Origin: Rhodoferax sp.
GTDB lineage: Bacteria > Pseudomonadota > Gammaproteobacteria > Burkholderiales > Burkholderiaceae_C
NCBI RefSeq assembly: GCF_010365055.1
Contig: NZ_JAAFHA010000005.1
Coordinates: 27,867-91,866 of the forward strand
Direction: 5' to 3'
Length of the DNA stretch: 64,000 bases
Part shown: positions 2,811-54,882 of the stretch, piece by piece
Layout of the letters: every line of letters begins with the position of its first letter
Position numbering within the stretch: position 1 is the stretch's first letter
The notes under the pieces: generated by a model
The model's database searches: none
What the model was told of the DNA's origin: nothing
Seen by the model: only the letters and a program-made list of their open reading frames with translations
Program-made: the position numbers and the translations under genes

Positions 2811-2875
2811 GATTTTGGCCTCTAGCCCCCGTCTTTATTGCTTATACAGCTATAACTTTAGAAGCAAAGAGTCCC
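2811..2875 (+). repeat. dispersed ~55-bp element, copy A
   Basis: GGCCTCTAGCCCCCGTCTTTATTGCTTATACAGCTATAACTTTAGAAGC; aligns with 7 other copies in the window. Confidence 0.8.
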
Positions 2876-2897
2876 GGACCCTTTGCTGCTGACAGGC

Positions 2898-4901
2898 TCA
2901 GGCGGCTCGCAGCCGTGGCCTGGCCCGCTGGCTGGCGTGCAGCCAAGCACGGCGCAGCACGGTCGGCGACTTGGTTTCTTCGGGAATCAGCAGGAAATTT
3001 TGCGCCCGCATCGCCGTCCCCAAGCCGACGCGACTGGTCACGACGGTCATGGGAATGGACAGCAGCAACGGCAGCCCGACGGGCAGCAACCAGACCAGGG
3101 CGCGTGGGTCGATCATGGCGACGCCGCCAGCCAGTACCGCAATCATCAAACTCATGGGGGCGAGTTGCGCCAGTGCATAACGCCACGGCACTGCCGCCGC
3201 TTCGCGCGGGGGCGATTTCCATTCCAGTTTGAGACCAGTGAGCGCCACCACCACAAACAGCGAATGCGCCAGCATGCGAACGGGCGCCTGCAGCAAGGCG
3301 ATGAGAGTTTCTAGCAGGGCGCTGCGCAGCAGGCTGGCCGTGCCGCCATAAGCCTGCTGCTGGCGGCTGAGCAGCACGGCGGCGAGGCCCAGAATGCGCG
3401 GCAAGAACAGCATGCTCAGTGTCCAGACCCAGAGCGCTACCAATTCGCCAGGCAGCAGCATCCAGTTGGCAACCATCGGCGAACCCGACAGCCACAGCGC
3501 CGTGCCCAGCGTCATAAAGCTCAACCACAGAGGCGCTGACAGGTAAGCCATGGCACCGGTGGCAAACATGGAGCGGTGCACCGGGTGAATGCCGGGCTCG
3601 GCAATCAGTCGCGAGTTTTGCAGGTTGCCCTGGCACCAACGGCGGTCGCGTTGCAGTTCGGCCAGCAGATCAGGCGGCTGCTGTTCGTAGCTGCCCACCA
3701 GATCGGCCACCAGCCAGACGTGGTAACCGGCGCGGCGCATCAGTGCCGCTTCGACGAAGTCATGCGACATGATGCTGCCCGACATGCCGCCGGTGCCCGC
3801 AATGCGCGCCAGCGCGCATTGCTGCATGAATGGCGCAACGCGGATGATGGCGTTGTGGCCCCAGTAGTGCGACTCGCCCATTTGCCAGAACTGCATGCCC
3901 AGCGTGAACAGGCGCCCCGTGACGCGTGAGGCAAACTGCTGCGCCCGGGCGTGCAAGGTGACATGGCCGATGGCCTGGGTGGCGGTCTGGATGATGCCAG
4001 CGGTCGGGTTGGCTTCCATCAGCTTGACCATGGAGACCAGGCAGTCGCCGCTCATCACGCTGTCGGCGTCCAGCACCACCATGTAGCGGTAGTCCTTGCC
4101 CCAGCGACGGCAGAAGTCGGCCACGTTGCCGGACTTGCGGTCGGTGCGGCGCTTGCGCAGACGGTAATAGACCTCGATTTGCGGCTGGTCGGGCTGGCTG
4201 GCGAGTTGGGCCCGCAGCTCTTCCCAGGCGGCGCGTTCCGCTTTCTGAATCGCGACGTCGTTGCTGTCAGACAGCACAAACACGTCAAAGGCCTGGACAT
4301 GCTTTGTTAGCGCCACCGATTCACAGGTGGCGCGCAGGCCGGCAAACACCGTGCGCACATCTTCATTGCAGATGGGCATGATGATGGCGGTGCGCGTGGC
4401 GGCATCGAGCGTATGGTGCTGAACCTTTTTGGCCGACAAACTGTGGCTGTCGCCGCGCAGCATCACGTAAAAACCCATCATCGCGGTCATGAAGCCTGTC
4501 ACCACCCAGGCCGACAGCAAGGCAAACAGTGTGGCCTGGCCGTACTGCAAGAAGGCGTTGTCGTAGTCGGGCTGTATGTCCGCAAAGAGACTGGTGGCCA
4601 GTACCGTACTGATCACCGTCAGCAGCAAAAATACGGTGCGCCGGCGTCTGGCGGCCTGCTGCCACGGCTCAGGCTTGTCAGCGATCGAAGCAGTTGGAAG
4701 CGCCTCGGCCTGGACCCTCCCCGTCTGCTTGAGAACGGGCAGCAGGGCCGCACTGGCGAGGCTGTTCCAGAAACCTCGCCATGGCCGCGGCACCATGCTG
4801 CCGCGGTTCACCGGCGGTGCCGTGACTGCGTTGGGGTGACGTTCTTCGCGCAAGACGCTGCGCCCGCTGATGGGGCTCACGGTGTGATCAGGTTGGTCCA
4901 T
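2898..4901 (-). CDS. opgH: glucans biosynthesis glucosyltransferase H
   Basis: 667 aa; family-2 glycosyltransferase motifs (VLDADSVMSGD, QRDRRWCQGN) with multiple TM segments; follows opgG. Confidence 0.93.
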   Translation of the reverse strand: MDQPDHTVSPISGRSVLREERHPNAVTAPPVNRGSMVPRPWRGFWNSLASAALLPVLKQTGRVQAEALPTASIADKPEPWQQAARRRRTVFLLLTVISTVLATSLFADIQPDYDNAFLQYGQATLFALLSAWVVTGFMTAMMGFYVMLRGDSHSLSAKKVQHHTLDAATRTAIIMPICNEDVRTVFAGLRATCESVALTKHVQAFDVFVLSDSNDVAIQKAERAAWEELRAQLASQPDQPQIEVYYRLRKRRTDRKSGNVADFCRRWGKDYRYMVVLDADSVMSGDCLVSMVKLMEANPTAGIIQTATQAIGHVTLHARAQQFASRVTGRLFTLGMQFWQMGESHYWGHNAIIRVAPFMQQCALARIAGTGGMSGSIMSHDFVEAALMRRAGYHVWLVADLVGSYEQQPPDLLAELQRDRRWCQGNLQNSRLIAEPGIHPVHRSMFATGAMAYLSAPLWLSFMTLGTALWLSGSPMVANWMLLPGELVALWVWTLSMLFLPRILGLAAVLLSRQQQAYGGTASLLRSALLETLIALLQAPVRMLAHSLFVVVALTGLKLEWKSPPREAAAVPWRYALAQLAPMSLMIAVLAGGVAMIDPRALVWLLPVGLPLLLSIPMTVVTSRVGLGTAMRAQNFLLIPEETKSPTVLRRAWLHASQRARPRLRAA

Positions 4902-6445
4902 GTTTCGCTCAGTGTTTGGTTGTTGTGTTGCAGGAAGGCGCGCAGCTCGACCGGCTGGGCCGGATTGAGTCGCTGCACGCGCAATGTCATGCGCCAGGCG
5001 CCGGTGGCGGGGTTCTTGTAGGCCAGGCTCTCCAGCACGCGGCCATTGGCATTGGCGGTGGCGATGGCCTTGACCGGCGCGTCCTCGGGCAATGCATCCA
5101 GGGCCGGGCCGGCAAAATCAATCACGAACTGGATTTGCTGACCCAGGGCCTCGGCGCCGATCTTGGTGTAGCCCGTGCCGCGGCGCGATTGCGTGACCCA
5201 GCCGTTGGGTGGCAACTGCTGGTTTTTGCCCTGCCAGTGAATGGTGTAGGCGACATCCAGCGATTGACCAGGTTTCGGTATTTTTTCTGGGACCCAATAG
5301 GCGGCCACGTTGTCGTGGGTTTCGTCGGGTGTTGCAAATTGCAGCAGCTCGACCCGGCCGGCGCCCCAGTCGCCCAAGGGCGTGACCCAGGCGCTGGGTC
5401 GGAGTTCATAGCGGGCTTCGGTGTCCTCAAAGCTGTTAAAGGCACGGTCGCGCTGCATCAGGCCAAAGCCCTTCAAGCTCTTCATGCTGAACGAGGTTGT
5501 GAGCGGTGACGCCGGGTTTTGCAGCGGTCGCCACAGCCATTCGCCTTCGCCGGTGGCCACCATCAAGCCGTCGGAGTCATGCACTTCCGGGCGAAAGTCG
5601 CCGGGACGGGGCTGGTTCTCGCCAAAGAGGAACATGCTGGTCAGCGGCGCCAGACCCAGCGTCGCCACGGGCGTGTCGGTCGGGCGCATGAAGATGCGGG
5701 CATGCACTTCGGTCACGGTCTGCTCGCCGGGCGTGATGTCAAAACGGTAGGCGCCCGTCATGCGCGGCGAATCCATCAGCGCATAGATGGTGAGTTGCTT
5801 GGCATCGGCGGCCGGCTTTTCAAGCCAGAACTCGGTGAAGCGCGGGAACTCTTCCTTGGCGCTGCCCGCCGTGTCAACCGCCAGGCCGCGTGCGGACAGG
5901 CCGTAGCGCTGGCCGCTGCCCAGCGCCCTGAAGTAGCTGGCGCCGGAAAAAACGACAAGTTCGTCCTTGTACGTCGCCGAGTTCAGGTTGTTGAAGGCGC
6001 GCAGGCCACCGAAGCCGAGATTGCCCCAGGTCTGCGGTGACACCTTGTTTTTTCCGAAGTTGAAGTCGGCATGGTTGTAGGGAATTGGCTTGATGCCTTG
6101 CGGCGTGATCTCATGGACACGAACGGAGTCGCCGCTTTTCCCGATGTGAAGAAAATTGGCCTCAAAAGGCAGCTTGTCCGCCCGCCACAAGGTGCTGGCC
6201 GCGTTGAAGCGGATGTCCCGGTAACCGTCGTAATCAAGATTGGCGAGTTCCACCGGAATCGCGTGGCTTGCCGGTTTAAAGGGTGCCTGGGCTTGCTGGC
6301 GAGCGAGCCCGGCGACATCGTCGAGCGTCCACGCCTGTGCCTGACCGGCAACCAAGGCCAGGACGCTGGCAACTATCAGGGTGACAAAGCGGGCCGCAAA
6401 GGTGTGTCCGCGACGATGGTAATAAGGGAGGCAAATAGTGGGCAT
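4877..6445 (-). CDS. opgG: glucan biosynthesis protein G (periplasmic)
   Basis: 522 aa; signal peptide then WTLDDVAGLARQQAQAPFK...LANLDYDGYRDIRFNAASTLW, typical OpgG; overlaps opgH start. Confidence 0.93.
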   Translation of the reverse strand: MPTICLPYYHRRGHTFAARFVTLIVASVLALVAGQAQAWTLDDVAGLARQQAQAPFKPASHAIPVELANLDYDGYRDIRFNAASTLWRADKLPFEANFLHIGKSGDSVRVHEITPQGIKPIPYNHADFNFGKNKVSPQTWGNLGFGGLRAFNNLNSATYKDELVVFSGASYFRALGSGQRYGLSARGLAVDTAGSAKEEFPRFTEFWLEKPAADAKQLTIYALMDSPRMTGAYRFDITPGEQTVTEVHARIFMRPTDTPVATLGLAPLTSMFLFGENQPRPGDFRPEVHDSDGLMVATGEGEWLWRPLQNPASPLTTSFSMKSLKGFGLMQRDRAFNSFEDTEARYELRPSAWVTPLGDWGAGRVELLQFATPDETHDNVAAYWVPEKIPKPGQSLDVAYTIHWQGKNQQLPPNGWVTQSRRGTGYTKIGAEALGQQIQFVIDFAGPALDALPEDAPVKAIATANANGRVLESLAYKNPATGAWRMTLRVQRLNPAQPVELRAFLQHNNQTLSETWTNLITP

Positions 6446-6649
6446 GGCAATACTAGTGCAAACCCTATGCCAACCCTTAAAAATCTATTTAAATCAACAG
6501 CTTGGCAACACTCAGAAAACAACGGCCCGGAAAACTGGACGGAATCCGGCGCAAACCGGCGTTTTTGTCGCCGAATAGCGACAACATCCGGCCTCTTAAG
6601 TTGAAATCCCTTTCAAATCAAGCGCTTAGGGCTGTCGCCTGTGAGCGAC

Positions 6650-8079
<1,430 letters not shown>

Positions 8080-8083
<4 letters not shown>

Positions 8084-8742
8084 GGCGCTGGGGGGCGCGT
8101 GCCACGATTGCCCGGCGCCGGAACGCTGGCTGCGGGCGGACGGCTCGTGAGGCTGCGTTCGATCGCCTTGAGTGCTTCCAGCCGCTCATTGGTCTGATCC
8201 AGCCGGCGCTGCATGTCGCGTGTCTGCTGCGTTTGCTTCTCAAGCTGTTCTTCCACGCGGCGCTGCTCGCCGTAGCGCGCGGCCAGCATGCCGGCCAGCG
8301 GATGCAGCGTCTGCGCCTCGGTATCGGCATTGGCCAGCACGCGTCCCAGCAGTTCCTGGGCACGTAGCAGCTCGCTCAGCTGATGAAGCTGACTCAGGGC
8401 CAAGGCCAGCTGCAGCTGTTGGGTCGGGCCGGCCGCGTCGCCCAGCCGGATCACTTCCTGGCTCAACTCTGCCGGCGCCAGCCGGCGCACCCGGTCCGCA
8501 TAGGCCAGCATGCGTGTGACGGCGTCAGTCGCCAGCGGCGCGGCCGGGCTGGCCGGCGACTCTGGCAGGCAGAGCTGGGGTCTGGGGGCAGCAGACGGCG
8601 TGACTGTTGCGCCCGTCGCGTCGTCACCGCGCTGACCGAAATGGCCAGCGCAGCCGCCCGCCAGCACCGATACAGCGATGGATGCCACCAGACCGAGACG
8701 GACCAGGCGACGGGAATGTCGAAAATCAGGACTTAAAAACAT
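8080..8742 (-). CDS. putative lipoprotein, YfhG/QseG-like
   Basis: MFLSPDFRHSRRLVRLGLVASIAVSVLAGGCAGHF lipobox; sits between histidine kinase and GlrR-like regulator. Confidence 0.7.
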
Positions 8743-10147
8743 GAGGAAACTCGATTCTGAAGTGGGCACCGACTGGATCCGGCAGCAGCTCGATGCGGCC
8801 GCCGTGCGCGGCAATATATTCGTGCACGATGGACAGACCAATGCCGCTGCCTCGCACCACGTCGCTGGGTTGGCGCTCGCCACGGTAAAACGGCTCGAAA
8901 ATCCGCTCGCGATCAGCCGCAGCCACCCCCACACCCTGGTCGTGAATGTCGATGCGGACCAGGCCCGGCAGTGTACTCAGCTCCAGGCGGATCTCGCCTT
9001 TCAGCGGTGAGTAGCGGATGGCATTGGACAACAGGTTGGCCAGCACCGTGCCGATTTTTTCGGGGTCCAGCGCCACCAGGATCGGCTTGCCGACGACGGT
9101 GACCGACAGCTCACGGGCGCGCCATTGCAGACGCTGCGCGTCAACCTGCGCTTCAACCAGCTCCAGCAAGTCGGTGGTCTGGCGGTGCAACTGGCGGGCC
9201 TCAAACGCCGCTGTATTAAAACGCAGCAGGTCTTCAATCTGGCCCTGCAAGACACCGGTGTTGTGCCGCAGGATTTGCGCGATTTCACTCTGTTCATGGC
9301 TCAGTTCGCCGGCCACGCCGTCCTCCAGCAGGGACACGCCTTCACGCAGCGATGCCAGCGGGGTCTTGAGTTCATGGGAAATATGACGCAAAAAGCGTGA
9401 CTTGTCGGCGTCGAGCTCGACCAGTCGCAGGCGCAGCCAGTTCAGCCGCTGCCCCACCATGACCAGGTCGGCCGGCCCCCGAATGGCGATCACCTGATCG
9501 AGCCGGTTCTCACCCAGGCCGACGATGGCGTGTTCCAGCCGCTTCAGGGGCACCGTGAACCAGATGCCGAAAGCCAGCGCCATGGCGACCGCCAGCGCGA
9601 TGGCCCAGGTGACCTGCTGCGCCAGGTGACTTCGGCTTTCTTCGAGCTTGGTTTCCAGCGCCAGGTTGCGTTGCTGGATGGTCTTTTGCACCTGCACCGC
9701 GATGGCCGAATTGACACGATCGAGTGAGCGAAACTTTTGGGCTATCTGGCGTTCCCGCTCCAGCGCGGTCTCGGGCGCGCCGGTCAACAGGACGCCAGCA
9801 GCTTGCAGGTGCGTCTGCCACTGCTGTTTGGGGCCGTCTGGCAGGCCTTGCGCTGTCAGGCTGCCGAGGATGCCGCTGGCCTCGCGTGCCTGGTCGGAAA
9901 AGCGCAGGCGCAGGACGCGGTCGTCCAGCACCACGGACTGGCGCGATGTGCGTTCCATTGAAACGCTGAGCTCGCTCAGTGACTGAGCGAGCCGGCTGAG
10001 CTCCAACGATCGGGACGCGCCGTTGCGGCTTTGCAGCGTGAGGTCTTCCAGCGTGAACAGGGCGCGCAACGAAGCCGCCCCCAGCAAAGCGGCAATCAGC
10101 AAAAAAGCGATCACCAGCAGTTGCCGGAACGAAAATTTCTGCAGCAT
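8726..10147 (-). CDS. glrK: sensor histidine kinase, GlrK/QseE-like
   Basis: N-terminal TM, HAMP, RHISHELKTPLASLREGVSLLEDG H-box, N/G boxes (LLSNAIRYSP, DQGVGV, GSGIGLSI). ATG at 10147; the track uses a TTG at 10153. Confidence 0.88.
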   Translation of the reverse strand: MLQKFSFRQLLVIAFLLIAALLGAASLRALFTLEDLTLQSRNGASRSLELSRLAQSLSELSVSMERTSRQSVVLDDRVLRLRFSDQAREASGILGSLTAQGLPDGPKQQWQTHLQAAGVLLTGAPETALERERQIAQKFRSLDRVNSAIAVQVQKTIQQRNLALETKLEESRSHLAQQVTWAIALAVAMALAFGIWFTVPLKRLEHAIVGLGENRLDQVIAIRGPADLVMVGQRLNWLRLRLVELDADKSRFLRHISHELKTPLASLREGVSLLEDGVAGELSHEQSEIAQILRHNTGVLQGQIEDLLRFNTAAFEARQLHRQTTDLLELVEAQVDAQRLQWRARELSVTVVGKPILVALDPEKIGTVLANLLSNAIRYSPLKGEIRLELSTLPGLVRIDIHDQGVGVAAADRERIFEPFYRGERQPSDVVRGSGIGLSIVHEYIAAHGGRIELLPDPVGAHFRIEFPHVFKS

Positions 10148-10149
10148 TT

Positions 10150-10329
10150 TCAAAGGCCAGGAGGTGAGGTCGTGAAAGTGATGCCGGTCAACGAGGCCGC
10201 TTCATCGATGTTGTCCACTTTGTCGGTGGACTCATCGCCTTGCGCGGCGTGGAGCACGTCGGCTATCTTGTCCGAGCCGTACCCGTTCATCTGGCGGCCG
10301 AAGATTTTGATAAGAACTCTTTTGGACAT
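10150..10329 (-). CDS. small hypothetical ORF
   Basis: 59-aa [29 protein letters not shown]... immediately upstream of glrK; no family recognised. Confidence 0.25.
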
Positions 10330-10348
10330 GGCGGAGATTTCAAATAAG

Positions 10349-10412
10349 TTACTGCTATTTTTATAGCACATTATTCATTATTGACGGGGGCTACAGCCTG
10401 TTTTATTGTGAA
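10349..10412 (-). repeat. dispersed ~55-bp element, copy B
   Basis: Reverse complement AACAGGCTGTAGCCCCCGTCAATAATGAATAATGTGCTATAAAAATAGCAG. Confidence 0.85.
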
Positions 10413-10479
10413 GATTCAACTAAAAAGTGCATCGATTGGTAGTTTAATCGGGCGCATTTCCAAACCCGCAAACCCGCTG

Positions 10480-10503
10480 CCCCTAGTTCTTTAGAACTAG
10501 GGG
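10480..10503. promoter_or_regulatory. perfect 24-bp palindrome upstream of narK1, NarL-like 7-2-7 geometry
   Basis: CCCCTAGTTCT-TT-AGAACTAGGGG: 11-bp perfect arms around a 2-bp centre; inner heptamers TAGTTCT/AGAACTA. Confidence 0.6.
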
Positions 10504-10612
10504 AGTCGCATCGCGCATAGTTCCATTTTCAATAAAAACCTGTTCCATAGAGGGATAGCGTCGCAGGGTCGCAAAACCTAAAGTCATGTCAATCCAAAAA
10601 GGAGTTTTCGAC

Positions 10613-11869: not shown

Positions 11870-11893
11870 TTTCCCATTCACTGAAAGAACCCG

Positions 11894-13522: not shown

Positions 13523-13550
13523 GCCAGCAAGCCCGCCATTCATCGCATCA

Positions 13551-13611
13551 TTTAGCTATTGATTTAATAGCTACATGCGCATGATAGACGGGGGATAGAG
13601 CCTGTTTTTAT
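13551..13611 (-). repeat. dispersed ~55-bp element, copy C
   Basis: Reverse complement AAACAGGCTCTATCCCCCGTCTATCATGCGCATGTAGCTATTAAATCAATAGCTAAA; intergenic narK2-narG. Confidence 0.85.
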
Positions 13612-13643
13612 ATAAATTTTTTCTTTTTTTGACGAGGTATCCC

Positions 13644-19047: not shown

Positions 19048-19050
19048 ATC

Positions 19051-26726: not shown

Positions 26727-27260
26727 TCAGGCGGCCCCTGTCAAAAGGTTTCCAAACGCAACAACAACCTCTGCCGGGGCCTGCACCAACTCAATCAAGA
26801 CGCCCTCGCCACTGATTGGAAATTCGTCATTCGATTTGGGATGCAGGAAACAGATGTCAAAACCAGCGGCACCCTGGCGGATGCCCCCGGGCGCAAAGCG
26901 AACACCTTGGGCCGTGAGCCATTGCACGGCAGCTGGCAGGTCGTCTATCCAGAGTCCGATGTGGTTCAGCGGTGTGCTTTGCACGGCAGGCTTCTTATCG
27001 GGGTCGACTGGCTGCATCAGGTCAACCTCGACCTTGAACGGGCCGCTACCCATGGCGCAAATATCTTCATCCACGTTTTCGCGCTCGCTCCTGAAAGTAC
27101 CGGTCACCTCCAGACCCAGCATGTCAACCCAGAGCCTTTGCAGTCTGGTTTTGTCTGTTCCACCAATGGCAACTTGCTGGATACCCAGCACCTTAAAGGG
27201 CCGCTCCTGCGCCTGGTCGGTGCTGAGCTTGACGAAAGGTCCAAGCGATTGGCTGCTCAT
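26727..27260 (-). CDS. mce: VOC-family protein, probable methylmalonyl-CoA epimerase
   Basis: [35 protein letters not shown]...[25 protein letters not shown]; next to pccA/mcm. Confidence 0.8.
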
Positions 27261-29311
27261 GCAAACTCCACAATCGCCTGATCCACGGTCAGACTCTCTC
27301 CCTTGGCCGCCAACACTTTGGCCACCACACCATCGGCTGTCGCAAACAACACGTTTTCCATCTTCATCGCCTCAATCACCGCCACGCGCTCACCCGCGAG
27401 CACCTTCTGCCCGGGTACCACCGCCACTTCCACCAGCAAGCCTGGCATCGGCGACAGCACAAAGCGACTCATGTCGGGCGGCGCCTTGTAGGGCATCAGG
27501 GTATAGAGTTCGGCCGCACGCTTGGACAGCACCAGCGTGTCGATTTGCGTGCCGTTGTGCGAGACCCGGATCGCCAGCGGATTTTTGCCCGCCAAGCTGC
27601 CGCGCTCGACCTGAGCGGTGAACGGATCGCCGTTGCAAGTGCCCTCCACACGCACTTGACCGAGATGATAATTGCTACAAATTTTGTAGCTTCTGGCACC
27701 CACCCTGACTAGGCTGGAGCCTGTTTTACCTTCAAAATCTGTGACCACAACCGGGGTCGGCTTGGAGACGCCTTGCTGACCGAGGGTCACCACCACAAAG
27801 TCTTCGCCCACCTCGACCTCATGACCCTCCATCTGCCCGCTGATAAAGGTGGCGCGGTTGCGGTACATGCGGTTAACAAAGGCAGCCAGCGCAATCAACC
27901 AGTCAGCATCAGCGTGCGGCACATCTTCGGCGCGGAAACCTTTTGAATAATTTTCCGCGATGAAGCCGGTGTTGAAGTCCCCGGCCACAAACTTGGGATG
28001 CGCCAGCAGAGCGGCCTGAAACGGGATGTTGCTGCTGATACCCCGAATCACAAAACCATTGAGCGCTTCGCGCATTTTGGCAATGGCATCCAGGCGGTCC
28101 TTGCCGTGCACTATCAGCTTGCCGATCATCGAGTCGTAAAACATGGGAATCTCGCCGCCGTCCTGCACCCCGGTATCGACCCGCACGCCGAACCAATGGT
28201 CAGTGTCGGCGGCAAACATGGTCTGCGCCGGTGGTTGGAATCGCACTAAACGTCCGGTGGAGGGCAAGAAGCTTCGGAACGGATCTTCTGCGTTGATGCG
28301 GCACTCAATCGCCCAGCCATCGCGCTTCACTTCGGCCTGTGTCAAAGGCAACTTTTCACCGGCGGCGACGCGAATCATCAACTCCACCAGGTCCAGGCCG
28401 GTGATGCACTCAGTCACCGGGTGCTCGACCTGCAAGCGGGTATTCATCTCCAGAAAGTAAAAACTCTGGTCCTTGCCGACCACAAACTCGACCGTGCCGG
28501 CACTCTGGTAGTTCACCGCTTTGGCCAAGGCCACGGCCTGCTCGCCCATCGCTTTGCGGGTCGCCTCGCTGATGAAGGATGAGGGCGCTTCTTCCAGCAC
28601 CTTTTGATGACGGCGCTGCAGCGAGCATTCCCGCTCATTGAGATACACCACGTTGCCAAAGCTGTCGCCAATCAACTGGATTTCAATGTGGCGCGGCTCC
28701 TCGACATACTTCTCGACGAATACCCGGTCGTCACCAAAGCTGCTGCGCGCTTCGTTGCGGCAGCTGGTATAGCCCTCAAACGCCTCCTTGTCGTTGTAGG
28801 CGACGCGCAGGCCTTTGCCGCCGCCGCCCGCGCTGGCTTTGATCATGACGGGGTAGCCAATGCCCTGGGCAATTTCAACCGCGCTTTCAGCCGTTTCTAT
28901 TGCGCTGTTGACGCCCGGAATGCAGTTCACCCCGGCCGCGCCAGCCAGCTTCTTCGACTCAATCTTGTCGCCCATGGCGGCCATCGAGTAGTGCTTGGGG
29001 CCGATGAAGACAATGCCTTCTTCTTCCACTTTTTTTGCAAACGCGGCGTTCTCGCTCAAGAAACCATAGCCAGGATGCAGTGCCTGGGCGCCGGTCTGCT
29101 TGCAAGCGGCGATGATTTTGTCGCCCTGCAAATAACTGTCGCGGCTCGGCGCCGGGCCGATGTTGACGGCCTCGTCGGCCAGCAGCACATGGCGCGCGTC
29201 CTTGTCGGCGTCGGAATACACCGCCACCGTTTTTATTCCCATCTTGCGGGCAGTGACGATGACGCGACAGGCGATTTCGCCACGGTTGGCGATCAGGATT
29301 TTGGTAAACAT
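27257..29311 (-). CDS. pccA: acetyl/propionyl-CoA carboxylase alpha subunit (biotin carboxylase + BCCP)
   Basis: [52 protein letters not shown]...[13 protein letters not shown] biotin site; true start at 29311. Confidence 0.93.
27666..27738 (-). repeat. dispersed ~55-bp element, copy D, inside pccA reading frame
   Basis: Sense strand AAAACAGGCTCCAGCCTAGTCAGGGTGGGTGCCAGAAGCTACAAAATTTGTAGCAATTATC, encoding [20 protein letters not shown]. Confidence 0.65.
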
Positions 29312-29385
29312 TTCAATACTCCTAACAATTTCTAGAGAGCCAGCGTTGGCTTTCGTTCTGGTTGTGGTGCGTCGTGTCTGAGCCC

Positions 29386-29605
29386 GCAATGGGCACGGCG
29401 TATCTACCTCCGCTCATGTCCCCCGCCCGCCGAAGCGGGCTCCTCCTTTACTTCGCTGCGGCAGATACGCCATGCCCATTGCTGCGAAGGAAGTTTGGCT
29501 AGGGACAGAGCAATACCCAACACCCAGGATCGGGCTTCCTGGGCGTTTTGCGCAGGTAAAGGAGGAGGCCGAAGGCCGGGGGACACGGAGCAAAACGTCC
29601 GGGTG
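29386..29605. repeat. composite intergenic inverted-repeat element between pccB and pccA
   Basis: 20-bp arms GCAATGGGCAcGGCGTATCT/AGATACGCCaTGCCCATTGC (29386-29405/29463-29482, 1 mismatch); second pair TGTCCCCCGCCCGCCGAAGCGGGCTCCTCCTTTAC/GTAAAGGAGGAGGCCGAAGGCCGGGGGACA (29417-29451/29556-29585); further CGTTTTGC/GCAAAACG and CCAGGA/TCCTGG. Confidence 0.8.
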
Positions 29606-29649
29606 GCCCGATCCAGCGCGGCACGAGTTGGTATTCATACCGGTGCAAA

Positions 29650-31182
29650 TCACAGCGGAATATTGCCGTGCTTGCGCCACGGGTTCTCAACCTTCTTGTC
29701 GCGCAGCATCACCAACGAACGGCAAATGCGTTTGCGGGTTTCGTGTGGCAGGATCACGTCGTCGATGAAGCCGCGCGCGCCGGCCACAAAGGGGTTGGCA
29801 AAGCGGGCTTTGTACTCGGCCTCTTTGGCCGCGATCTTGGCGGGGTCGCTCTTGTCTTCACGGAAGATGATTTCCACCGCGCCCTTGGCCCCCATCACCG
29901 CAATCTCAGCATTGGGCCAGGCAAAGTTCACATCGCCGCGCAGGTGCTTGGAGCTCATCACGTCATAAGCGCCACCATAGGCTTTACGCGTGATGACGGT
30001 GATCTTGGGCACCGTGCACTCGGCAAAGGCATAGAGCAGCTTGGCGCCATGCTTGATGATGCCGCCGTACTCTTGCGCCGTGCCGGGCATGAAGCCGGGC
30101 ACATCGACAAAGGTGATGACCGGAATATTGAACGCATCGCAAAAGCGCACAAAGCGCGCCGCCTTGATGGAGCTCTTGATGTCCAGGCAACCAGCCAGCA
30201 CCAGCGGCTGATTGGCCACGATGCCCACGGTCTGTCCTTCCATGCGGCCAAAGCCGATCAGGATGTTTTTGGCGTACTCGGGCTGCAGCTCAAAAAAGTC
30301 ACCGTCGTCGACGGTCTTGACGATCAGCTCTTTCATGTCATAGGGCTTGTTCGCGTTATCGGGCACCAGCGAGTCCAGGCTCAGGTCCATGCGCTCGGCC
30401 GGGTCACCGCTGCGGCGCACTGGCGCTCTCTCGCGGTTGTTGAGCGGCAGGTAGTTGTAGAGGCGGCGCAGCATCAAGAGCGCTTCCACATCGTTCTCAA
30501 ACGCCAGATCGGCCACACCACTTTTGGTCGTGTGGCTGATGGCGCCACCGAGTTCCTCGGCGGTCACCTCTTCATGGGTCACGGTCTTCACCACCTCGGG
30601 GCCGGTCACGAACATGTAGGAGCTGTCTTTGACCATGAAGATGAAGTCGGTCATGGCCGGCGAGTACACGGCACCACCGGCACACGGGCCCATGATCATG
30701 CTGATCTGCGGCACCACGCCGCTGGCCATCACGTTGCGCTGAAACACGTCGGCGTAACCGCCCAGAGACGCCACACCCTCCTGAATGCGGGCACCGCCCG
30801 AGTCGTTGAGACCAATCACGGGGGCACCGACCTTCATGGCCTGATCCATCACTTTGCAAATTTTTTCCGCGTGCGCCTCACTCAAGGCACCACCAAACAC
30901 GGTGAAATCCTGGCTGAACACAAACACCAGGCGGCCATTGATCATGCCGTAGCCTGTCACCACACCATCGCCCGGAATCTTCTGGTCCTGCATGCCGAAA
31001 TCGACGCAGCGGTGCTCCACGAACATGTCCCACTCTTCAAACGTGCCCTCGTCGAGCAGCAACTCCAGGCGTTCACGGGCGGTGAGCTTGCCCTTTTTGT
31101 GTTGCGCGTCAATGCGCTTTTGGCCACCCCCCAAGCGCGCAAGCTCGCGTTTGGCTTCAAGTTGTTCAAGGATGTCGTGCAT
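29650..31182 (-). CDS. pccB: propionyl-CoA carboxylase beta subunit
   Basis: 510 aa carboxyltransferase: [58 protein letters not shown]...[20 protein letters not shown]. Confidence 0.94.
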
Positions 31183-31224
31183 GGTTTTCTCTTTCTTAAG
31201 GTGTGATCGTCTCGGTCGATTTAT

Positions 31225-31275
31225 ACTATTACTTTTATAGCTAACTATGCCCTATTTACCTGGGCTAGAAGCATA
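31225..31275 (-). repeat. dispersed ~55-bp element, copy E, overlapping the 3' end of meaB
   Basis: Reverse complement GCTTCTAGCCCAGGTAAATAGGGCATAGTTAGCTATAAAAGTAATAGTA; contains the meaB stop codon. Confidence 0.7.
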
Positions 31276-32336
31276 TTTCGTGCTGCAGTGGAGGCCGCCA
31301 TACGGCCCTCCAGCACTTGCTTTGTAAACTGCGGCAGCAATTGATTGACTTGCGGATGCTCACGAAACGCCTGTTTCAAGCCGGCATCAATGCGCTCCCA
31401 CATCCAGGCCAGCGATTGCTGCTGGCGCCGCGCGCCAAACCTGCCGCTATCAAGCTGCAAGGATCTGAATTGCAGCACTGCGGCCCAGAAAGTGTCAACG
31501 CCCTGCCCCTGCAGCGCGCTAAGCTGGATCACCTGCGGGTGCCAGATTTTTTCGTCATGGTGCATGTGCTGCGGGTTGCCGTGCAGCCCCAGCAAGCGCA
31601 GTGACGAGGTGATCTGGGCGCGCGCGCGCGTCGCGGCGTTGGGGTCGATGTCGGCCTTGTTGATGACGACCAGGTCGGCCAGTTCCATCACGCCTTTCTT
31701 GATGGCCTGCAGATCGTCACCCGCGTTGGGCAACTGCATCAGCACGAACATGTCGGTCATGTTGGCCACCGCCGTCTCGGACTGGCCGACGCCCACGGTT
31801 TCGACAATCACCACGTCATAACCGGCGGCCTCGCACACCAGCATTGCCTCGCGCGTTTTCTCGGCCACGCCCCCCAAAGTGCCGCTGCTGGGGCTGGGGC
31901 GAATGTAGGCGTGCTCGTGCACCGAGAGCCTTTCCATGCGCGTCTTGTCGCCCAGGATGGAGCCGCCCGAGACGGTGCTGGAGGGGTCAATGGTGAGAAC
32001 GGCGACGCGGTGGCCCTGCGCAATCAGGTACAGGCCCAGAGCCTCAATAAAGGTCGACTTGCCGACGCCCGGAACGCCGCTGATGCCCAGACGAAACGAC
32101 TTGCCGGTGTGAGGCAGCAAGGCGGTCAAAAGCTCGTCAGCCTGCAGCCGGTGGTCGGCGCGGGTCGATTCCAGCAAGGTGATGGCTTTGGCGATGGCGC
32201 GGCGTTGCTGCGGCGGCGTGCCCTGCAAAATCGCTTCATGCAAGCGGTTCCAAGGCGTACCCTGCGATGCCGAGCCCGCTATTAAATAAGAAGCTGCTTG
32301 TGCAGTCTGGACGGGGGCTACAGGCTTATTTCTCAT
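31245..32336 (-). CDS. meaB: methylmalonyl-CoA mutase-associated GTPase MeaB (ArgK family)
   Basis: [18 protein letters not shown]...[24 protein letters not shown]...[20 protein letters not shown]. Confidence 0.93.
32278..32332 (-). repeat. dispersed ~55-bp element, copy F, forming the meaB N-terminal codons
   Basis: Sense strand AATAAGCCTGTAGCCCCCGTCCAGACTGCACAAGCAGCTTCTTATTTAATAGC = [18 protein letters not shown]. Confidence 0.8.
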
Positions 32337-32773
32337 AAAATTTCAAACGAGCGACCATCAGGCAGCCGATAGCGCGAGAAGTCGCGCACATCCAGCGTCA
32401 TGATGCGAGTGACACCCGTTTGCTCGGCCAACCACAGCAGCGAGGCATCGGCCAGATCCATTTCAGAGCGTGGTGCTTGCGTATAGCGGTGCATGAGATC
32501 GGCAAAATCAATCAGTTCCTCTTGTTCAAATGGATACACCGAAATGGCGCCATGGCCCAACCAACGCAACAAGGTGTAACGCTGCGGCGGTGCCACCATG
32601 TAACTGGCCTCAGTCACGCAGGGCCAGGTCGTTGACAGAGACCAACGTTGCTCTGACGCGCTTTGAAACAAGGTCTGGTAATGCTGCCCTTTGGGCTGGT
32701 CAGTGCCAAAAACAGCCACCAGCGCGCTGGCATCAATCAGTGCTGCTGGCATGCTTGGCCTTGAGTCGTTCAA
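32333..32773 (-). CDS. PIN-domain toxin, VapC-like
   Basis: [13 protein letters not shown]...[35 protein letters not shown]-domain acidic residues; downstream of and overlapping an RHH antitoxin gene. Confidence 0.85.
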
Positions 32774-33067: not shown

Positions 33068-35248
<2,181 letters not shown>

Positions 35249-38057: not shown

Positions 38058-38201
38058 TTCTCACCTCTTTCTGGTCTTGCGCTGAACAACTCATCCTCAT
38101 GCCACCCCTCTGCGATGCCACTGGGCGACCCCCTGAATTTCGATTATTACCAAGGTCGAGCATCAATAACGCAATATCGCGAGTCAACTAGACATCTACA
38201 C

Positions 38202-38260
38202 GTTTTAAGCCTCTAGCCCCCGTGTATATTGCATACATAGCTATTAATATGAAAGCAAAC
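38202..38260 (+). repeat. dispersed ~55-bp element, copy G
   Basis: AGCCTCTAGCCCCCGTGTATATTGCATACATAGCTATTAATATGAAAGC. Confidence 0.85.
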
Positions 38261-43820: not shown

Positions 43821-43873
43821 GGTTGCACCTATTTCCAAAATGAGTTGCACCTATTTTAATTTGGGTGCAACCC
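43821..43873. promoter_or_regulatory. three GTTGCA operator-like sites at the putA start
   Basis: GTTGCA at 43822-43827 and 43844-43849, and the inverted form TGCAAC at 43866-43871, each offset by exactly 22 bp. Confidence 0.7.
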
Positions 43874-44002
43874 ATATTTAATCAGGGTTAACCCTCGTCG
43901 CTTGCGAAGCTTGCGCTACCCATGCCATGGCACCGCTCCGGCAATTGGGTAGCACGAGGTAGTGGTGCATTACCTGCCCAATACGTCAATGCTGATTCAC
44001 CC

Positions 44003-46072: not shown

Positions 46073-46073
46073 C

Positions 46074-48935: not shown

Positions 48936-49284
48936 AGAGCGACTTAGGGACGACGGCCGCAATCTTACCCGGCGGGCTAGGACTACTGCACCGTCCGGCT
49001 AGGGTGGGATTAAGAGGCTAGTCGTCGAGTTTGTGTTCCAGCCGCTCGGCCAACCGGCGTTCGCCCGGTGTCATGCGCGAAGCGCAAGCACCAAATGCTG
49101 GTAGCAGTGTTGCCATTTGTCACCTCGGCCCTGAATTTGTTTTGAGCCCATTATGAGCTGGGTCAAAACTTGCGCAGATTGATGTGGGTCAACTGGTATG
49201 GCGGCATTGCGGCTGCGGCAGAGAAAGCGCAGAGATCAACAGCGTTCGATAGGGATCGGAACTGTTTGATGTGGTGGATTGTGC

Positions 49285-49361
49285 TGGTCTGCCCGGAGGG
49301 GATTGAACCCCCGACCCACAGCTTAGAAGGCTGTTGCTCTATCCAACTGAGCTACGGGCAG
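49285..49361 (-). tRNA. tRNA-Arg(TCT)
   Basis: CTGCCCGTAGCTCAGTTGGATAGAGCAACAGCCTTCTAAGCTGTGGGTCGGGGGTTCAATCCCCTCCGGGCAGACCA: full cloverleaf, anticodon TCT, encoded CCA. Confidence 0.96.
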
Positions 49362-51213
49362 CCGCATGAGGACTATACCCGACGGGCTCAGCCGACATAT
49401 ACATCTTCTCGACCACATCGCGGTGGCGATCCAGCACCGCTTTGCGCTTGATCTTCATGGTTGCCGTCAATGCGCCAGTGTCAATCGACAAGGGCTCAGT
49501 CAGCACACTGAACTTGCGAATCCACGCAACGTGGGCCTGACTCTGATTGATCGCGTCAACGCCCTTCTGCAACTCAGCCAGCACCAGCGGATGCTGGCAG
49601 GCGTCTGCGCCGCCAACATCAGAGACATCACTGGCCGCCAGAAGCGACTTCAGCACATCGGGCTTGAGCGTCAGCAGCGCAGTCAAAAAATGGCGCCCAT
49701 CACCGCATACAACTGCATGCTCGACCAAAGGAAGACTCATCAACTGCGCTTCAATATTTGCCGGCGATATGTTCTTGCCACCGGAGGTAATCAGCAGGTC
49801 TTTTTTCCGACCCGTCACGTAAAGGTAGCCATCCTCATCAAAGCGACCCAGGTCACCGGAATGCAGCCAGCCAGCCACCAGCGTTTGCGCGGTATCTTCG
49901 GGTCGCCCCATGTAGCCCTGAAAAACATGCGGTCCACGCACCAATATTTCGCCATCGTCAGCAATTCGCACCTGACTGCCCGCCAGTGGCTTGCCCACCG
50001 CACCGATACGGGTACTGCCGACCAGGCTGATGGAGGTCGGGCCGCAATCTTCGGACTGCCCGTAAACCTCGCGGATCAACAAGTCAAGGCCAGTGAAGAA
50101 CCGCAGATTCTCGGGCGCAATCGGCGCGGCGGCCGAGATCATCAAGCGCGCCTGGTCCAGGCCCAACGCCTTCTGCACCTTTTGATGAATCAATCTTGAC
50201 GCTAGCGCCTTCTGCATCCGCAGCAACACGCCCGGCGACTTGCCGGCCAGCTCGCTGGCGTGCCAGCGCTGACCAACCGTCAGCGCCCAGCGCGCCAACA
50301 CCGCCTTGGCTCCGGTGGCGCCCGCCAGTTTGGCGGCGATGCCGGCGTGCATCTTCTCCCAGACACGTGGCACACCAAAGAAAATCGTCGGATGTACTTC
50401 TTTGAGATGATCGCCCAAGGATTCAATACTCCGGGCGAAATAGAGCGCGTAACCGATGGTCACATGGTTATGAATACCACCGAGCTGTTCGGCAACGTGC
50501 GCCAGCGGCAGGTACGAGATCAGGCGATCAGTCGGCTTGCAGTCAAAGGCAGCAGACAGGGTCACTGCGGTCCAGGCCAGATTGCCATGCGACAACATCA
50601 CGGCCTTGGGCGCACCGGTCGTGCCTGAGGTGTAGATCAGGGTACCCAGATCATCGGGGCCCAACGCCGCCAGGCGGCGTTCCACCTCGGCCTGATGCCT
50701 TTGCTCGCCCAACGCCAAAAAGTCATGCCAGGTAATTTGCCAGTCACTGTCTGCCTTGGCACCGCGCATCAGCACCACGCGTTGCAAACGTGGCAGTGCC
50801 GCGCGGCGATCTGCCACCTTGGCCCATTGCGTCTCGTTTTCTACGAGCAGCACCGTGCAATGCGAATGGTCAATGATGTACTCAACCTCGCTGGCCGCAC
50901 TGGTCCAGTAGACGCCCGCCGCGACCGCACCAATCATCATCGCGGCCAGATCCATGATCACCCACTCGGGGCGATTGAAGCCCAAAATACACACAGCCTC
51001 GCCCGGCTTGACGCCCAGCGCGACCAGTGCCCGCGCTGCGCACTGCACCTGCTCCGCATAAGACGTCCAACTGGTCGGTTGCCATGCGGTGTCGCCGCGT
51101 TCATAGTAGGCCGGTGCCGCGCCGCGCTGCTGCGCGGTGGCCAAAAAACGCGCCGGCGCCGCAACAAAGGGAACGCCCGCGACCAGGGTGGGGTGGGTGG
51201 GTGCAGCGTTCAT
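49339..51213 (-). CDS. long-chain acyl-CoA synthetase (AMP-binding, FadD15-like)
   Basis: LIYTSGTTGAPKAVMLSHGNLAWT; GYLYVTGRKKDLLITSGGKNISPANIE; 3' end runs 23 bp into the tRNA-Arg gene. Confidence 0.9.
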   Translation of the reverse strand: MNAAPTHPTLVAGVPFVAAPARFLATAQQRGAAPAYYERGDTAWQPTSWTSYAEQVQCAARALVALGVKPGEAVCILGFNRPEWVIMDLAAMMIGAVAAGVYWTSAASEVEYIIDHSHCTVLLVENETQWAKVADRRAALPRLQRVVLMRGAKADSDWQITWHDFLALGEQRHQAEVERRLAALGPDDLGTLIYTSGTTGAPKAVMLSHGNLAWTAVTLSAAFDCKPTDRLISYLPLAHVAEQLGGIHNHVTIGYALYFARSIESLGDHLKEVHPTIFFGVPRVWEKMHAGIAAKLAGATGAKAVLARWALTVGQRWHASELAGKSPGVLLRMQKALASRLIHQKVQKALGLDQARLMISAAAPIAPENLRFFTGLDLLIREVYGQSEDCGPTSISLVGSTRIGAVGKPLAGSQVRIADDGEILVRGPHVFQGYMGRPEDTAQTLVAGWLHSGDLGRFDEDGYLYVTGRKKDLLITSGGKNISPANIEAQLMSLPLVEHAVVCGDGRHFLTALLTLKPDVLKSLLAASDVSDVGGADACQHPLVLAELQKGVDAINQSQAHVAWIRKFSVLTEPLSIDTGALTATMKIKRKAVLDRHRDVVEKMYMSAEPVGYSPHAAARSSVG

Positions 51214-52085
51214 CAGCGCGCCAGTCCGAGCAAGGCCCTGGCTTCCGCCGGGCTAGCCACCGAGCGACCGGCGTTGCGGGCGCAGGCGGCTAAGGCAGTG
51301 ATCAGTTCACCGTTGCCGCTGGCGCGTTCGCCATTGGGCAGATAGAAGGTGTCTTCCAGGCCAGTGCGCAGCATGCCGCCCAGATCGGCGGTTTTTTGAT
51401 GCACCGGCCAGATTTCAGTGCGGCCAATCAGCGTGGCCTGCCAGACGCTGTTGGTCACCATCCACTGGGGCAGCAAGGCCAGTAGATCGGCATCGCACGG
51501 CATGCCAGAGGCCACGCCCATCACCAGGTTGTATTCAGGGCGGCCCATCTCGGGTTTGAGCATGCCGTTTTTCACGAACATGCCCACGGCACGAACGATG
51601 CCCACGTCAAAGCACTCAAACTCGGGGTGGGTGCCGCATTCGGCCATCACATCCAGAAACTGCTGCACCTTGGCCACCGGGTTGTCAAACACCATGGGCG
51701 GCCAGGCCCAGTTGCCGTCTTCCTTGATCTTCAGGTAGTTCAGGCTGCCCGCGTTGCAGGCGGCAATCTCGGGTTTGACGCGGCGGATGCAGGCCAAGGG
51801 GCCCGAAATGTCCTTGCCGACCACACCGGTGGTCAGGTTGATGATGACGCCGGGGCAGGCTTCGCGGATGGCATTGACCACCGACTCCATCACATCCGGG
51901 TCCCACGACGGCATATGGCCCATGCCCTCTTCCTGGTTGCGCACATGCACATGCATGATGGAGGCGCCCGCGTTGAAGGCATCGCGCGCCTCGGCCGCCA
52001 TCTGGGCTGGGGTCACCGGCACCGGGTGCTGCTTCGGGTTGGTCAGAACGCCGGTCAGGGCGCAAGTCAAAATTGCTTTTTCCAT
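51213..52085 (-). CDS. BKACE-family (DUF849) beta-keto acid cleavage enzyme
   Basis: MEKAILTCALTGVLTNPKQHPVPVTPAQMAAEARDAFNAGASIMHVHVRN (HxH metal motif). Confidence 0.88.
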   Translation of the reverse strand: MEKAILTCALTGVLTNPKQHPVPVTPAQMAAEARDAFNAGASIMHVHVRNQEEGMGHMPSWDPDVMESVVNAIREACPGVIINLTTGVVGKDISGPLACIRRVKPEIAACNAGSLNYLKIKEDGNWAWPPMVFDNPVAKVQQFLDVMAECGTHPEFECFDVGIVRAVGMFVKNGMLKPEMGRPEYNLVMGVASGMPCDADLLALLPQWMVTNSVWQATLIGRTEIWPVHQKTADLGGMLRTGLEDTFYLPNGERASGNGELITALAACARNAGRSVASPAEARALLGLAR

Positions 52086-54049
52086 TAGGCTTCCTCTTTG
52101 TCTTGCAGCTCAATTTCGATCAGCAAGGCACCCGATTCGACTTGCTCGCCAACTTTCACATGCAGCGCCACCACCGTGCCGGCGGCCTGCGCCGTCAGCC
52201 ACATTTCCATCTTCATCGCCTCAACGCACACGAGTGCCTGCCCTTCTTTGACGCCCTCGCCCACCGCAAACTGAATTTGCGTGACCTTGCCCGCCACCGG
52301 GGACAACGCCCGCGTGGCGTCCAGCGCAGCGTCCTTGCTCGGGAACGGCGACACCTCGTGCAAGACAAAGGAGCTGCCTCCCAACGCGATGTGCAGCTCC
52401 TGCTGATGCCGCACCGCGATGGCGCTGCGCGTGACCCCGTCGATCTCATAGCGCAGATGGCCGTCCTTAAAGTCAATGATCCGCACCCGATGCTGTTGAC
52501 CTGCCAACGTCACCGTGACCTGCCCGCTGCGATCCGGATGCACGCGCAGTGTTTTTGTGAGTTCATCGCAGCGCAGGGGAATATCAAAGGCTGCCACGCT
52601 GTCAGCACGCCAGTTGGCGCCGCTTTGCATGGCAAGGGCTGATGCCGCCACACACCAGGCCTGGTCGTCCGCAAGCGGACGTTGTAACAGCGCCTCGCCC
52701 GCCTCTTGCCACTGGTCGATCAGGGTGGTGGTCATGGCGGCGGCGCGAAAGGCCGGGTGATTCACCAGGTCCGCCAGGAAACGAGCGTTGTTGCGCAGTC
52801 CGAGCAGGGGCGCGTTCTCCAGGGCGGCGCGCAGGCGCCGGATCGCGTCATCGCGGTCACGGCCGTGCACGATGACTTTGGCCACCATCGGGTCGTAATA
52901 GGGAGAAACTTCGCTGCCCTCTTCAATGCCGGCGTCAATGCGCACACCGTCAAACAGGGCCTGCTGCGGGCGCCAAAAGCGCACCGTGCCGGTTTGCGGC
53001 GCAAAACCGGCGTATGGGTCTTCCACATACAGGCGTGCTTCGATCGCATGGCCCGTCAGCTTGATGTCGGCTTGAATTGCTGGCAGCGGCTGGCCCGCCG
53101 CCACCCGCAGCTGCCACTCCACCAGATCAAAGCCCGTCACCAGTTCGGTCACCGGGTGCTCGACCTGCAAGCGCGTGTTCATTTCCAGAAAGTAGTGCTT
53201 GAGGTCGGCATCCACGATGAATTCCACTGTGCCCGCGCCGCGGTAGCCCACGGCCAAGGCGGCAGCCACGGCGTCCTTGCCCATGGCTTCGCGCATTGCC
53301 GCATTGACGACAGGCGACGGCGCCTCTTCGATCACTTTTTGCCGCCTGCGCTGGGCCGTGCAGTCGCGCTCACCCAGGTACACGGCGTTGCCGTGGTCAT
53401 CGGCAAAGACCTGAATTTCAATATGCCGGCCGTTGTCAATCAGGCGCTCCAGCATCAGGGTGCCGTCGCCAAAGGCGCCCTGCGCCTCGCGCCGCGCGCC
53501 GACGATCGCCTGCGCAATCTCCTTGGCCGAGCGTACCAGGCGCATACCACGGCCACCGCCACCGGCCACCGCTTTGACCAGCAAGGGAAACCCCAGTTTC
53601 AGCGCTTCCTCGGTTAGGCGCGCATCGTCCTGCGCCTCGCCCAGGTAGCCCGGCGCACAGGGCACGCCCGCCAGCAGCATGCGACGCTTGGCCCGTGCCT
53701 TGTCACCCATGGCCAGCATGGCGGCAGGCGGCGGGCCGATAAATACCAAAGCAGCGTCCAGGCAGGCCTGGGCGAAGCCCGCGTTTTCGCTCAGGAATCC
53801 GTAACCGGGGTGAATCGCGTCAGCACCGGTCTTGCGCGCCGCTTCCAGCAAGGCATCCACCCGCAGGTACGAATCCGCTGCCGCTGAGCCCCCAATATGC
53901 ACGGCTTCGTCGGCCAGGCGCACATGCGGCGCGTCTCTGTCAACATCACTGTAGACGGCGACGGTTCTATAGCCCAGGTTGCGCGCGGTGCGCATGACTC
54001 GGCAGGCGATCTCGCCCCGGTTGGCGATCAGTATTTTTGAGAAGGTCAT
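52085..54049 (-). CDS. acyl-CoA carboxylase alpha subunit (methylcrotonyl- or geranyl-CoA carboxylase type)
   Basis: [54 protein letters not shown]...VEAMKMEMWLTA biotin site. Confidence 0.9.
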   Translation of the reverse strand: MTFSKILIANRGEIACRVMRTARNLGYRTVAVYSDVDRDAPHVRLADEAVHIGGSAAADSYLRVDALLEAARKTGADAIHPGYGFLSENAGFAQACLDAALVFIGPPPAAMLAMGDKARAKRRMLLAGVPCAPGYLGEAQDDARLTEEALKLGFPLLVKAVAGGGGRGMRLVRSAKEIAQAIVGARREAQGAFGDGTLMLERLIDNGRHIEIQVFADDHGNAVYLGERDCTAQRRRQKVIEEAPSPVVNAAMREAMGKDAVAAALAVGYRGAGTVEFIVDADLKHYFLEMNTRLQVEHPVTELVTGFDLVEWQLRVAAGQPLPAIQADIKLTGHAIEARLYVEDPYAGFAPQTGTVRFWRPQQALFDGVRIDAGIEEGSEVSPYYDPMVAKVIVHGRDRDDAIRRLRAALENAPLLGLRNNARFLADLVNHPAFRAAAMTTTLIDQWQEAGEALLQRPLADDQAWCVAASALAMQSGANWRADSVAAFDIPLRCDELTKTLRVHPDRSGQVTVTLAGQQHRVRIIDFKDGHLRYEIDGVTRSAIAVRHQQELHIALGGSSFVLHEVSPFPSKDAALDATRALSPVAGKVTQIQFAVGEGVKEGQALVCVEAMKMEMWLTAQAAGTVVALHVKVGEQVESGALLIEIELQDKEEA

Positions 54050-54882
54050 TGCAAGGCCCAGCTTGGTTTGCGCTTTTGAAAAAAGGCGGTGGTGCCCTCC
54101 AGCCCCTCGGGGCCTTGTGCGGCGCGGGAAAAAATGCGGGCAGCCTCCTGCACCAGGGTGGCGGGCTCGGCAAAACGTGCTTTCGCCATCAAAGCCTTGG
54201 TGGCCGCAACAGCACCAGGCGCGCAGGCCTGGATGTCGGTCAGCACGGCCGCAACGGCGGCGTCAATCTGCTCGGGCGTATGCACCGCGTGCACCAGGCC
54301 AATCGCCAGGGCATTGGCCGCGCTCAAGCGCCCGCCCGTCACCGCCAGCCGCTTGGCCTGGGAGTAGCCCAGCCGCTCGACCAGGAACGGTGCAATCTGG
54401 GCCGGCACCACGCCCAAAGCGGTTTCCGGCAATCGAAATACCGCCGACTCGCTCGCCAGCGCCACATCCGCCACGCAGGCCAAGCCCAGGCCACCGCCCA
54501 TGACGCTGCCCTCTAACACCACCACCAGCGCCAGCGGCGTGTTGGCGTAGGCGACACACAGTTCGCCGAACTGCGCGTTGGCCTGCGCCACAGCATCCAG
54601 CGCGGCGCCCGCTTGGGCCGACGCGGGCGGGTTCTGCATCGCCCGCATGCGCGCGGCTGCCATGTCCTGCAAATCAGCGCCAGCGCAAAAATGCCCGCCT
54701 GCCCCACGCAACACCACGATGCGCACGCTGCCATCGGCCTCCAGGGTGATGAGCGCGGCGCGCAACTCAGCCACCATCTGCAGCGACATGGCGTTACGCA
54801 ATGCCGGTCGGTTCAAGGTAATATGAGCCGTAGCCCCCGTCTGATCTACCTTTATAGCTTCGTAATTCATAGCAACTGTCAT
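54046..54882 (-). CDS. enoyl-CoA hydratase/isomerase family (methylglutaconyl-CoA hydratase-like)
   Basis: TAHITLNRPALRNAMSLQMVAELRAAL...GAGGHFCAGADLQDM...GSVMGGGLGLACVADVALA. Confidence 0.88.
   Translation of the reverse strand: MTVAMNYEAIKVDQTGATAHITLNRPALRNAMSLQMVAELRAALITLEADGSVRIVVLRGAGGHFCAGADLQDMAAARMRAMQNPPASAQAGAALDAVAQANAQFGELCVAYANTPLALVVVLEGSVMGGGLGLACVADVALASESAVFRLPETALGVVPAQIAPFLVERLGYSQAKRLAVTGGRLSAANALAIGLVHAVHTPEQIDAAVAAVLTDIQACAPGAVAATKALMAKARFAEPATLVQEAARIFSRAAQGPEGLEGTTAFFQKRKPSWALQ
54823..54882 (+). repeat. dispersed ~55-bp element, copy H, antisense to and overlapping the enoyl-CoA hydratase 5' end
   Basis: ATGAGCCGTAGCCCCCGTCTGATCTACCTTTATAGCTTCGTAATTCATAGCAA; minus-strand translation MTVAMNYEAIKVDQTGATAH. 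Confidence 0.8.

What the first reader, a model, noticed from the sequence alone, without database searches (positions are those of the whole stretch)
2811..54882. Eight-copy dispersed ~55-bp element with a GGCTSTAGCCCCCGTC block and an AGCTAT...ATAGC hairpin
Aligning by eye, eight segments share the layout [A-rich]-GGCT(S)TAGCCCCCGTC-TAT..TGC-ATA-TAGCTAT-AT-rich-ATAGC: A 2811-2875, B 10349-10412, C 13551-13611, D 27666-27738, E 31225-31275, F 32278-32332, G 38202-38260, H 54823-54882. Both orientations occur. The copies differ in the middle but keep both ends, as expected of a mobile or structured repeat rather than a common promoter. I have seen similar intergenic motifs in Comamonadaceae but know of no functional description.
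Basis: partly seen in the sequence, partly recalled or inferred. Interest (0 to 1): 0.8.

Follow-up and report, generated by a model that had tools for sequence, protein, structure and literature searches.

The report
Repeat family tied to a domesticated transposase
About 500 copies of a 65-base DNA repeat are scattered through this Rhodoferax-like genome, and relatives across the Comamonadaceae family carry their own versions; the repeat also sits just after a single-copy, transposase-like gene that was thought to have no such partner, so that gene probably spreads it.

Summary
In detail: all eight segments, plus a ninth at 33703-33768, belong to one gapless ~65-bp dispersed repeat, with roughly 530 copies in the genome. 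It is not shown to be a structured RNA: neither the AGCTAT/ATAGC stem nor the middle stem covaries significantly. It behaves like a non-autonomous mobile element: abundant in 76 of 251 family genomes, present or cleanly absent at orthologous sites, with a core homogenised within each genome. A likely mobiliser was found: a single-copy REP-associated tyrosine transposase (RAYT) beside gltB. In 41 of 109 RAYT loci an element follows the stop codon, antisense, at about 79 times the density elsewhere in those loci. Core variants read from the RAYT flanks of one genus correctly predicted 150-365 copies in three of its genomes. By motifs this RAYT falls in subclass 2.1, for which a published survey found no REP (PMC6006769). 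Many copies lie in frame inside protein genes. I file it as a new variant of the RAYT/REP kind: no GTAG tag, no pairs, no demonstrated hairpin. Transposition is inferred; 21 of 76 element-rich genomes lack a close RAYT orthologue.

The parts
2802..2867 (-). copy A
   Evidence: score 58.7 with a matrix built outside the window; downstream of a glycosyltransferase gene
10349..10414 (+). copy B, exact core
   Evidence: score 58.7; core with 0 mismatches; between a histidine kinase gene and an MFS transporter gene
13553..13618 (+). copy C, just upstream of the nitrate reductase alpha (narG) gene
   Evidence: score 74.8; element at the same place in seven or more relatives, absent in two
27672..27737 (+). 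copy D (weak), inside a carboxylase alpha-subunit gene
   Evidence: score 21.9; gapless in 14 relatives, so insertion not demonstrated
31223..31288 (+). copy E (weak, degenerate), at the 3' end of the meaB gene
   Evidence: score 24.9
32276..32341 (+). copy F, overlapping the start of the meaB open reading frame
   Evidence: score 71.1; the MeaB domain begins only at residue 48
   Evidence: score 30.1; E = 0.0018
38193..38258 (-). copy G, between a DUF2844 gene and a periplasmic binding-protein gene
   Evidence: score 54.6; neighbours
54810..54875 (-). copy H, in the N-terminal coding region of an enoyl-CoA hydratase gene
   Evidence: score 38.8; ORF and Pfam domain

Best explanation
The repeat is a short non-autonomous mobile element of Comamonadaceae whose partner is a domesticated, single-copy, vertically inherited HUH tyrosine transposase of the RAYT family (subclass 2.1 by its motifs) next to gltB. 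The transposase probably recognises the element as single-stranded DNA, most likely through the conserved TAGC and ACGGGGGCTA blocks, cuts with its catalytic tyrosine and helps copy the element to new sites. In each lineage the recognised core drifts together with the transposase, so each genome has its own core type. Some inserts land in frame in protein loops and linkers and are kept. Shown here: the repeat family, its fixed position at the RAYT 3' end, agreement between flank variant and genome-wide copies in a lineage, presence/absence at orthologous sites. Inferred: binding, cleavage, the single-stranded intermediate, and that the RAYT is what moves it.
For: RAYT in 238 of 251 family genomes, mostly single copy. 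In the genome of the window the RAYT is flanked on both sides by the element. In 41 of 109 RAYT loci an element lies within 150 bp of the stop codon, nearly all at 6-35 bp and 41 of 42 antisense; 1.83 per kb against 0.023 per kb elsewhere in the same loci. Cores read from the RAYT flanks of genus g33 (L052, L054) predicted TACGCNGGCTANAGNC; three g33 genomes hold 150-365 copies, with reversed-pattern controls of 2-5, against at most 10 in ten of the other eleven genomes tested (the window's genome has 56, control 20). Core identity is higher between different sites of one genome (0.672) than between the same site of different genomes (0.595) or unrelated pairs (0.532), 0 of 2000 permutations. 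Clean empty sites upstream of the homoserine dehydrogenase gene in eight relatives, filled in about fifteen. Element-rich genomes are enriched for close RAYT orthologues: 55 of 85 against 21 of 166. The protein passes NCBIfam REP_Tyr_transpos and its only PDB match is E. coli TnpA-REP, 4er8.
Against: 21 of 76 element-rich genomes lack a close RAYT orthologue, and none of the six Y1-transposase loci fetched from a sample of eight such genomes shows an adjacent element. Many genomes with the RAYT have no detectable element. No target-site duplication or exact end was established. The hairpin expected of a RAYT substrate is not supported in this genome. The enrichment is confounded by phylogeny.
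Confidence: 0.68

Rival explanations
1. A mobile repeat moved by some other enzyme (a MITE of an unidentified transposase), with the RAYT 3' copy merely an ancient insertion inherited vertically.
For: Element-rich genomes without a close RAYT orthologue; the 3' copy is often decayed; no RAYT chemistry was tested.
Against: An inherited dead copy would not be expected to share the genome-wide core of each lineage. The element ends are not inverted repeats as in MITEs. The other Y1 transposase of the genome has no flanking element.
Confidence: 0.17
2. A protein-binding or regulatory site (nucleoid protein, promoter or terminator part) that evolves in concert with its binding protein and is not mobile.
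For: Gapless spacing of two blocks in 173 distinct copies from other genomes; a TTGACG-like box with an AT-rich stretch downstream; one copy is part of a conserved terminator in 21 relatives.
Against: Both orientations; 12 of 30 exact-core copies in coding sequence; clean absence at some orthologous sites; association with a transposase gene.
Confidence: 0.1
3. A structured RNA element (processing site or small RNA).
For: In some lineages the middle arms pair (CGCTT with AAGCG, CCCTT with AAGGG) and one copy folds strongly (L206, z -4.8).
Against: No significant covariation, no Rfam match at the copies, copies in both orientations inside genes.
Confidence: 0.03

Closest known systems
RAYT/REP systems (REPtrons, REPINs; E. 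coli TnpA-REP, PMC8266576, PMC3116915)
   Same: Single-copy domesticated HUH tyrosine transposase, hundreds of short repeats, repeats next to the transposase gene, agreement of the two within a lineage.
   Different: No conserved GTAG tag, no demonstrated hairpin, no head-to-head pairs seen, ~65 bp instead of 20-40, and a RAYT subclass reported to have no REP.
TIRYTs, subclass 2.1 RAYTs (PMC3733652, PMC6006769)
   Same: The RAYT here has NHFH, YIDLNP and 241 residues, and flanking inverted repeats AATTGGGGTCAGATTCC with the published GGGGWSAS motif.
   Different: The repeat described here is a different, additional sequence at the 3' end; the survey reports no REP-like repeats for this subclass.
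Rickettsia palindromic elements (RPE)
   Same: Short repeats found in frame in protein genes.
   Different: Different bacteria and sequence; no 8-9 bp CGTC-tagged stem.
BRE of Bordetella and other Betaproteobacteria (PMC3110155)
   Same: Dispersed short repeat, also reported in Comamonadaceae, sometimes within genes.
   Different: BRE (Bordetella copies) is ~90 bp, 64-79% G+C and often in tandem; these copies are mostly 28-56% G+C and dispersed. BRE letters were not available for a direct comparison.

Membership tests
RAYT/REP (REPtron) | transposase with HUH and catalytic Tyr of the REP-associated family | tested here: met
   NF047646 81.4 bits, just over cut-off 80; 4er8 alignment keeps HUH and Tyr
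RAYT/REP (REPtron) | repeat lies next to the transposase gene | tested here: met
   41 of 109 loci at the 3' end, ~79-fold enriched; both sides in the window's genome
RAYT/REP (REPtron) | tens to hundreds of copies genome-wide | tested here: met
   ~530 copies by extrapolation
RAYT/REP (REPtron) | GTAG tetranucleotide beside the palindrome | tested here: not met
   first base of the [A/G]TAGC block is A in 16 and G in 12 of 30 copies
RAYT/REP (REPtron) | stable imperfect palindrome | tested here: inconclusive
   not supported in this genome; arms pair in some other lineages
RAYT/REP (REPtron) | head-to-head or tail-to-tail pairs | tested here: not met
   strong copies in 464 kb are single
RAYT/REP (REPtron) | cleavage by the transposase | not testable with these tools
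   needs a biochemical assay
MITE | terminal inverted repeats and target-site duplication | tested here: inconclusive
   no inverted repeat at the ends; no duplication evident at filled and empty sites, but relatives are too distant to fix exact junctions
Rickettsia palindromic element | in-frame location inside protein genes | tested here: met
   12 of 30 exact-core copies; RlmD and DapE sites
Rickettsia palindromic element | CGTC-tagged 8-9 bp stem | tested here: not met
   no such stem in the copies
Structured RNA | compensatory changes | tested here: not met

The most novel reading that the evidence does not exclude
Subclass 2.1 RAYTs, a large RAYT group regarded as lacking REP partners, do have a cognate repeat family: a hairpin-poor ~65-nt element recognised by sequence, which diversifies together with the transposase across Comamonadaceae and supplies in-frame peptide inserts to housekeeping proteins.
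Probability: 0.55. Interest if true: 0.75.

Novelty: new variant of a known kind. Interest (0 to 1): 0.62.

Why it matters
It offers a substrate for a widespread class of domesticated transposases with no known partner, so binding and cleavage can be tested directly. It also gives a natural set of in-frame repeat copies in DapE, RlmD, MiaA, YidC and other proteins outside Rickettsia, and explains a repeat that will recur in Comamonadaceae genome annotation.

Tried and rejected
Structured RNA: RNAalifold gave no pairs; named stems did not exceed shuffled or slid controls. Rfam found only tmRNA and two tRNAs. sigma-70 promoter: considered because of the TTGAC-like box and an AT-rich -10-like stretch; rejected as the main reading because of copies inside genes and in both orientations. 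BRE: different length and G+C. The intragenic copy in PriA shows no extra residues against PDB homologues, so insertion was not shown there; copy D likewise. Y1-transposase loci of element-rich genomes with a weak or absent RAYT match showed no flanking element.

Full report
Observation. Read in the orientation GCTAY-N7-RTAGC-TGCTTGCGCA-N5-GACGGGGGCTASAGCC-TNATTT-N6-ATAAA, the segments align without gaps with copies from the rest of the genome. A matrix built only from copies outside the window recovers all eight and a ninth (33703-33768), while 12 random windows give nothing above zero. The core occurs 236 times in the genome against 24 for the reversed control at up to two mismatches. A sequence model finds 57 copies at E<=0.001 in 464 kb, about 530 per 4.33-Mb genome; my notebook's earlier figures of ~580 copies and 13 of 30 in ORFs were slips, corrected here.

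Structure. Neither the left hairpin nor the middle arms show significant covariation in the 34 copies of A1 or in 124 diverse copies (the middle stem reached z 1.9, but a slid control reached 2.2). DNA folding is near shuffles for most copies. Only in lineages with AAGCG or AAGGG cores do the arms pair.

Distribution. With a model from 57 diverse copies, 76 of 251 family genomes give at least 10 hits among the 18 candidates scored, and most others give none to a few. The exact core of this genome is abundant in only a handful, because each lineage has its own core. A gapless scan of other genomes' loci found 180 matches (173 distinct) against 0 in shuffled sequence.

Mobility. Upstream of the homoserine dehydrogenase gene the element is present in about 15 same-genus genomes and absent without trace in 8, the intergenic gap being about 50 bp shorter. 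Just upstream of narG (site of copy C) it is present in seven or more, absent in two, and a different repeat is found there in five. Other sites show similar patterns. Core identity is higher between sites within a genome than between orthologous sites. Some loci in that test (L312-L314, L316) were fetched by similarity to this genome's core, a bias that works against the result.

Partner. The genome has two Y1 transposases. One, a 241-aa RAYT, carries the element on both sides. Its orthologue or homologue is found in 238 of 251 family genomes, mostly single copy; in the 30 closest loci examined it usually lies before a gltB-like gene and is bounded by inverted AATTGGGGTCAGATTCC repeats (gltB named from the start of the encoded protein). 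In 41 of 109 loci the element follows the stop codon, nearly always by 6-35 bp and antisense. Core variants read off these flanks in genus g33 predicted the genome-wide family there: 273, 365 and 150 copies against controls of 2-5. The protein passes NCBIfam REP_Tyr_transpos and resembles E. coli TnpA-REP. Motifs NHFH, WE, YIDLNP, its length and the GGGGWSAS-type TIR match subclass 2.1, for which neither automatic nor manual search found REP-like sequences (PMC6006769; TIRYT, PMC3733652). Assignment to 2.1 is by motif, not by tree.

Limits. 55 of 85 genomes with a close RAYT orthologue are element-rich against 21 of 166 without, but phylogeny confounds this and 21 element-rich genomes remain unexplained. 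Two of them (G041, G164) are only 70-74% complete. Many genomes with the RAYT show no element.

Coding copies. Of 30 exact- or near-exact-core copies, 12 lie in open reading frames with coding character on both sides, among them DapE, a lipoyl-domain dehydrogenase, a biotin-carrier/carboxyltransferase fusion, MiaA, PriA, RlmD, YidC and a T2SS L-type protein; several fall in linkers between Pfam domains. In an unselected set of 50 copies about six do. In RlmD and DapE the same codons hold the element in many relatives, often with the core type of their genome, so these are old residents that have been homogenised or re-targeted. MiaA has extra residues there against E. coli; PriA and copy D show none, so insertion is not shown for them.

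Verdict. A real, abundant, mobile-type repeat; the RAYT link is the strongest new claim and is inferential at the biochemical level.

Noticed in passing
loci L172, L167, L170, L168, L173 (same-genus genomes), just upstream of narG: A different repeat (CATTGCGGGCTTGACCCGCAATCCATGG-like) occupies the place where other relatives carry this element.
   Followed up: no
L210:11785-11849 and 21 relatives: A copy is fused to a conserved terminator-like hairpin AAGGGCTAGAGC...GCACTAGCCCTTTTT in the relatives, an apparent co-option.
   Followed up: partly
L210:5136-5204 and L258: A copy appears to encode most of a signal-peptide-like N-terminus; two relatives without it have an unrelated N-terminus of equal length.
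   Followed up: no
L031 (G000:C86:6620-6982): A second, IS200-like Y1 transposase of the genome, without flanking elements.
   Followed up: partly
window 27257-32336: Propionyl-CoA carboxylase alpha-type, carboxyltransferase and meaB genes in a row, with copies D, E and F among them.
   Followed up: no
window 60577-60963, 58941-59013, 49288-49361: tmRNA and two tRNA genes.
   Followed up: no
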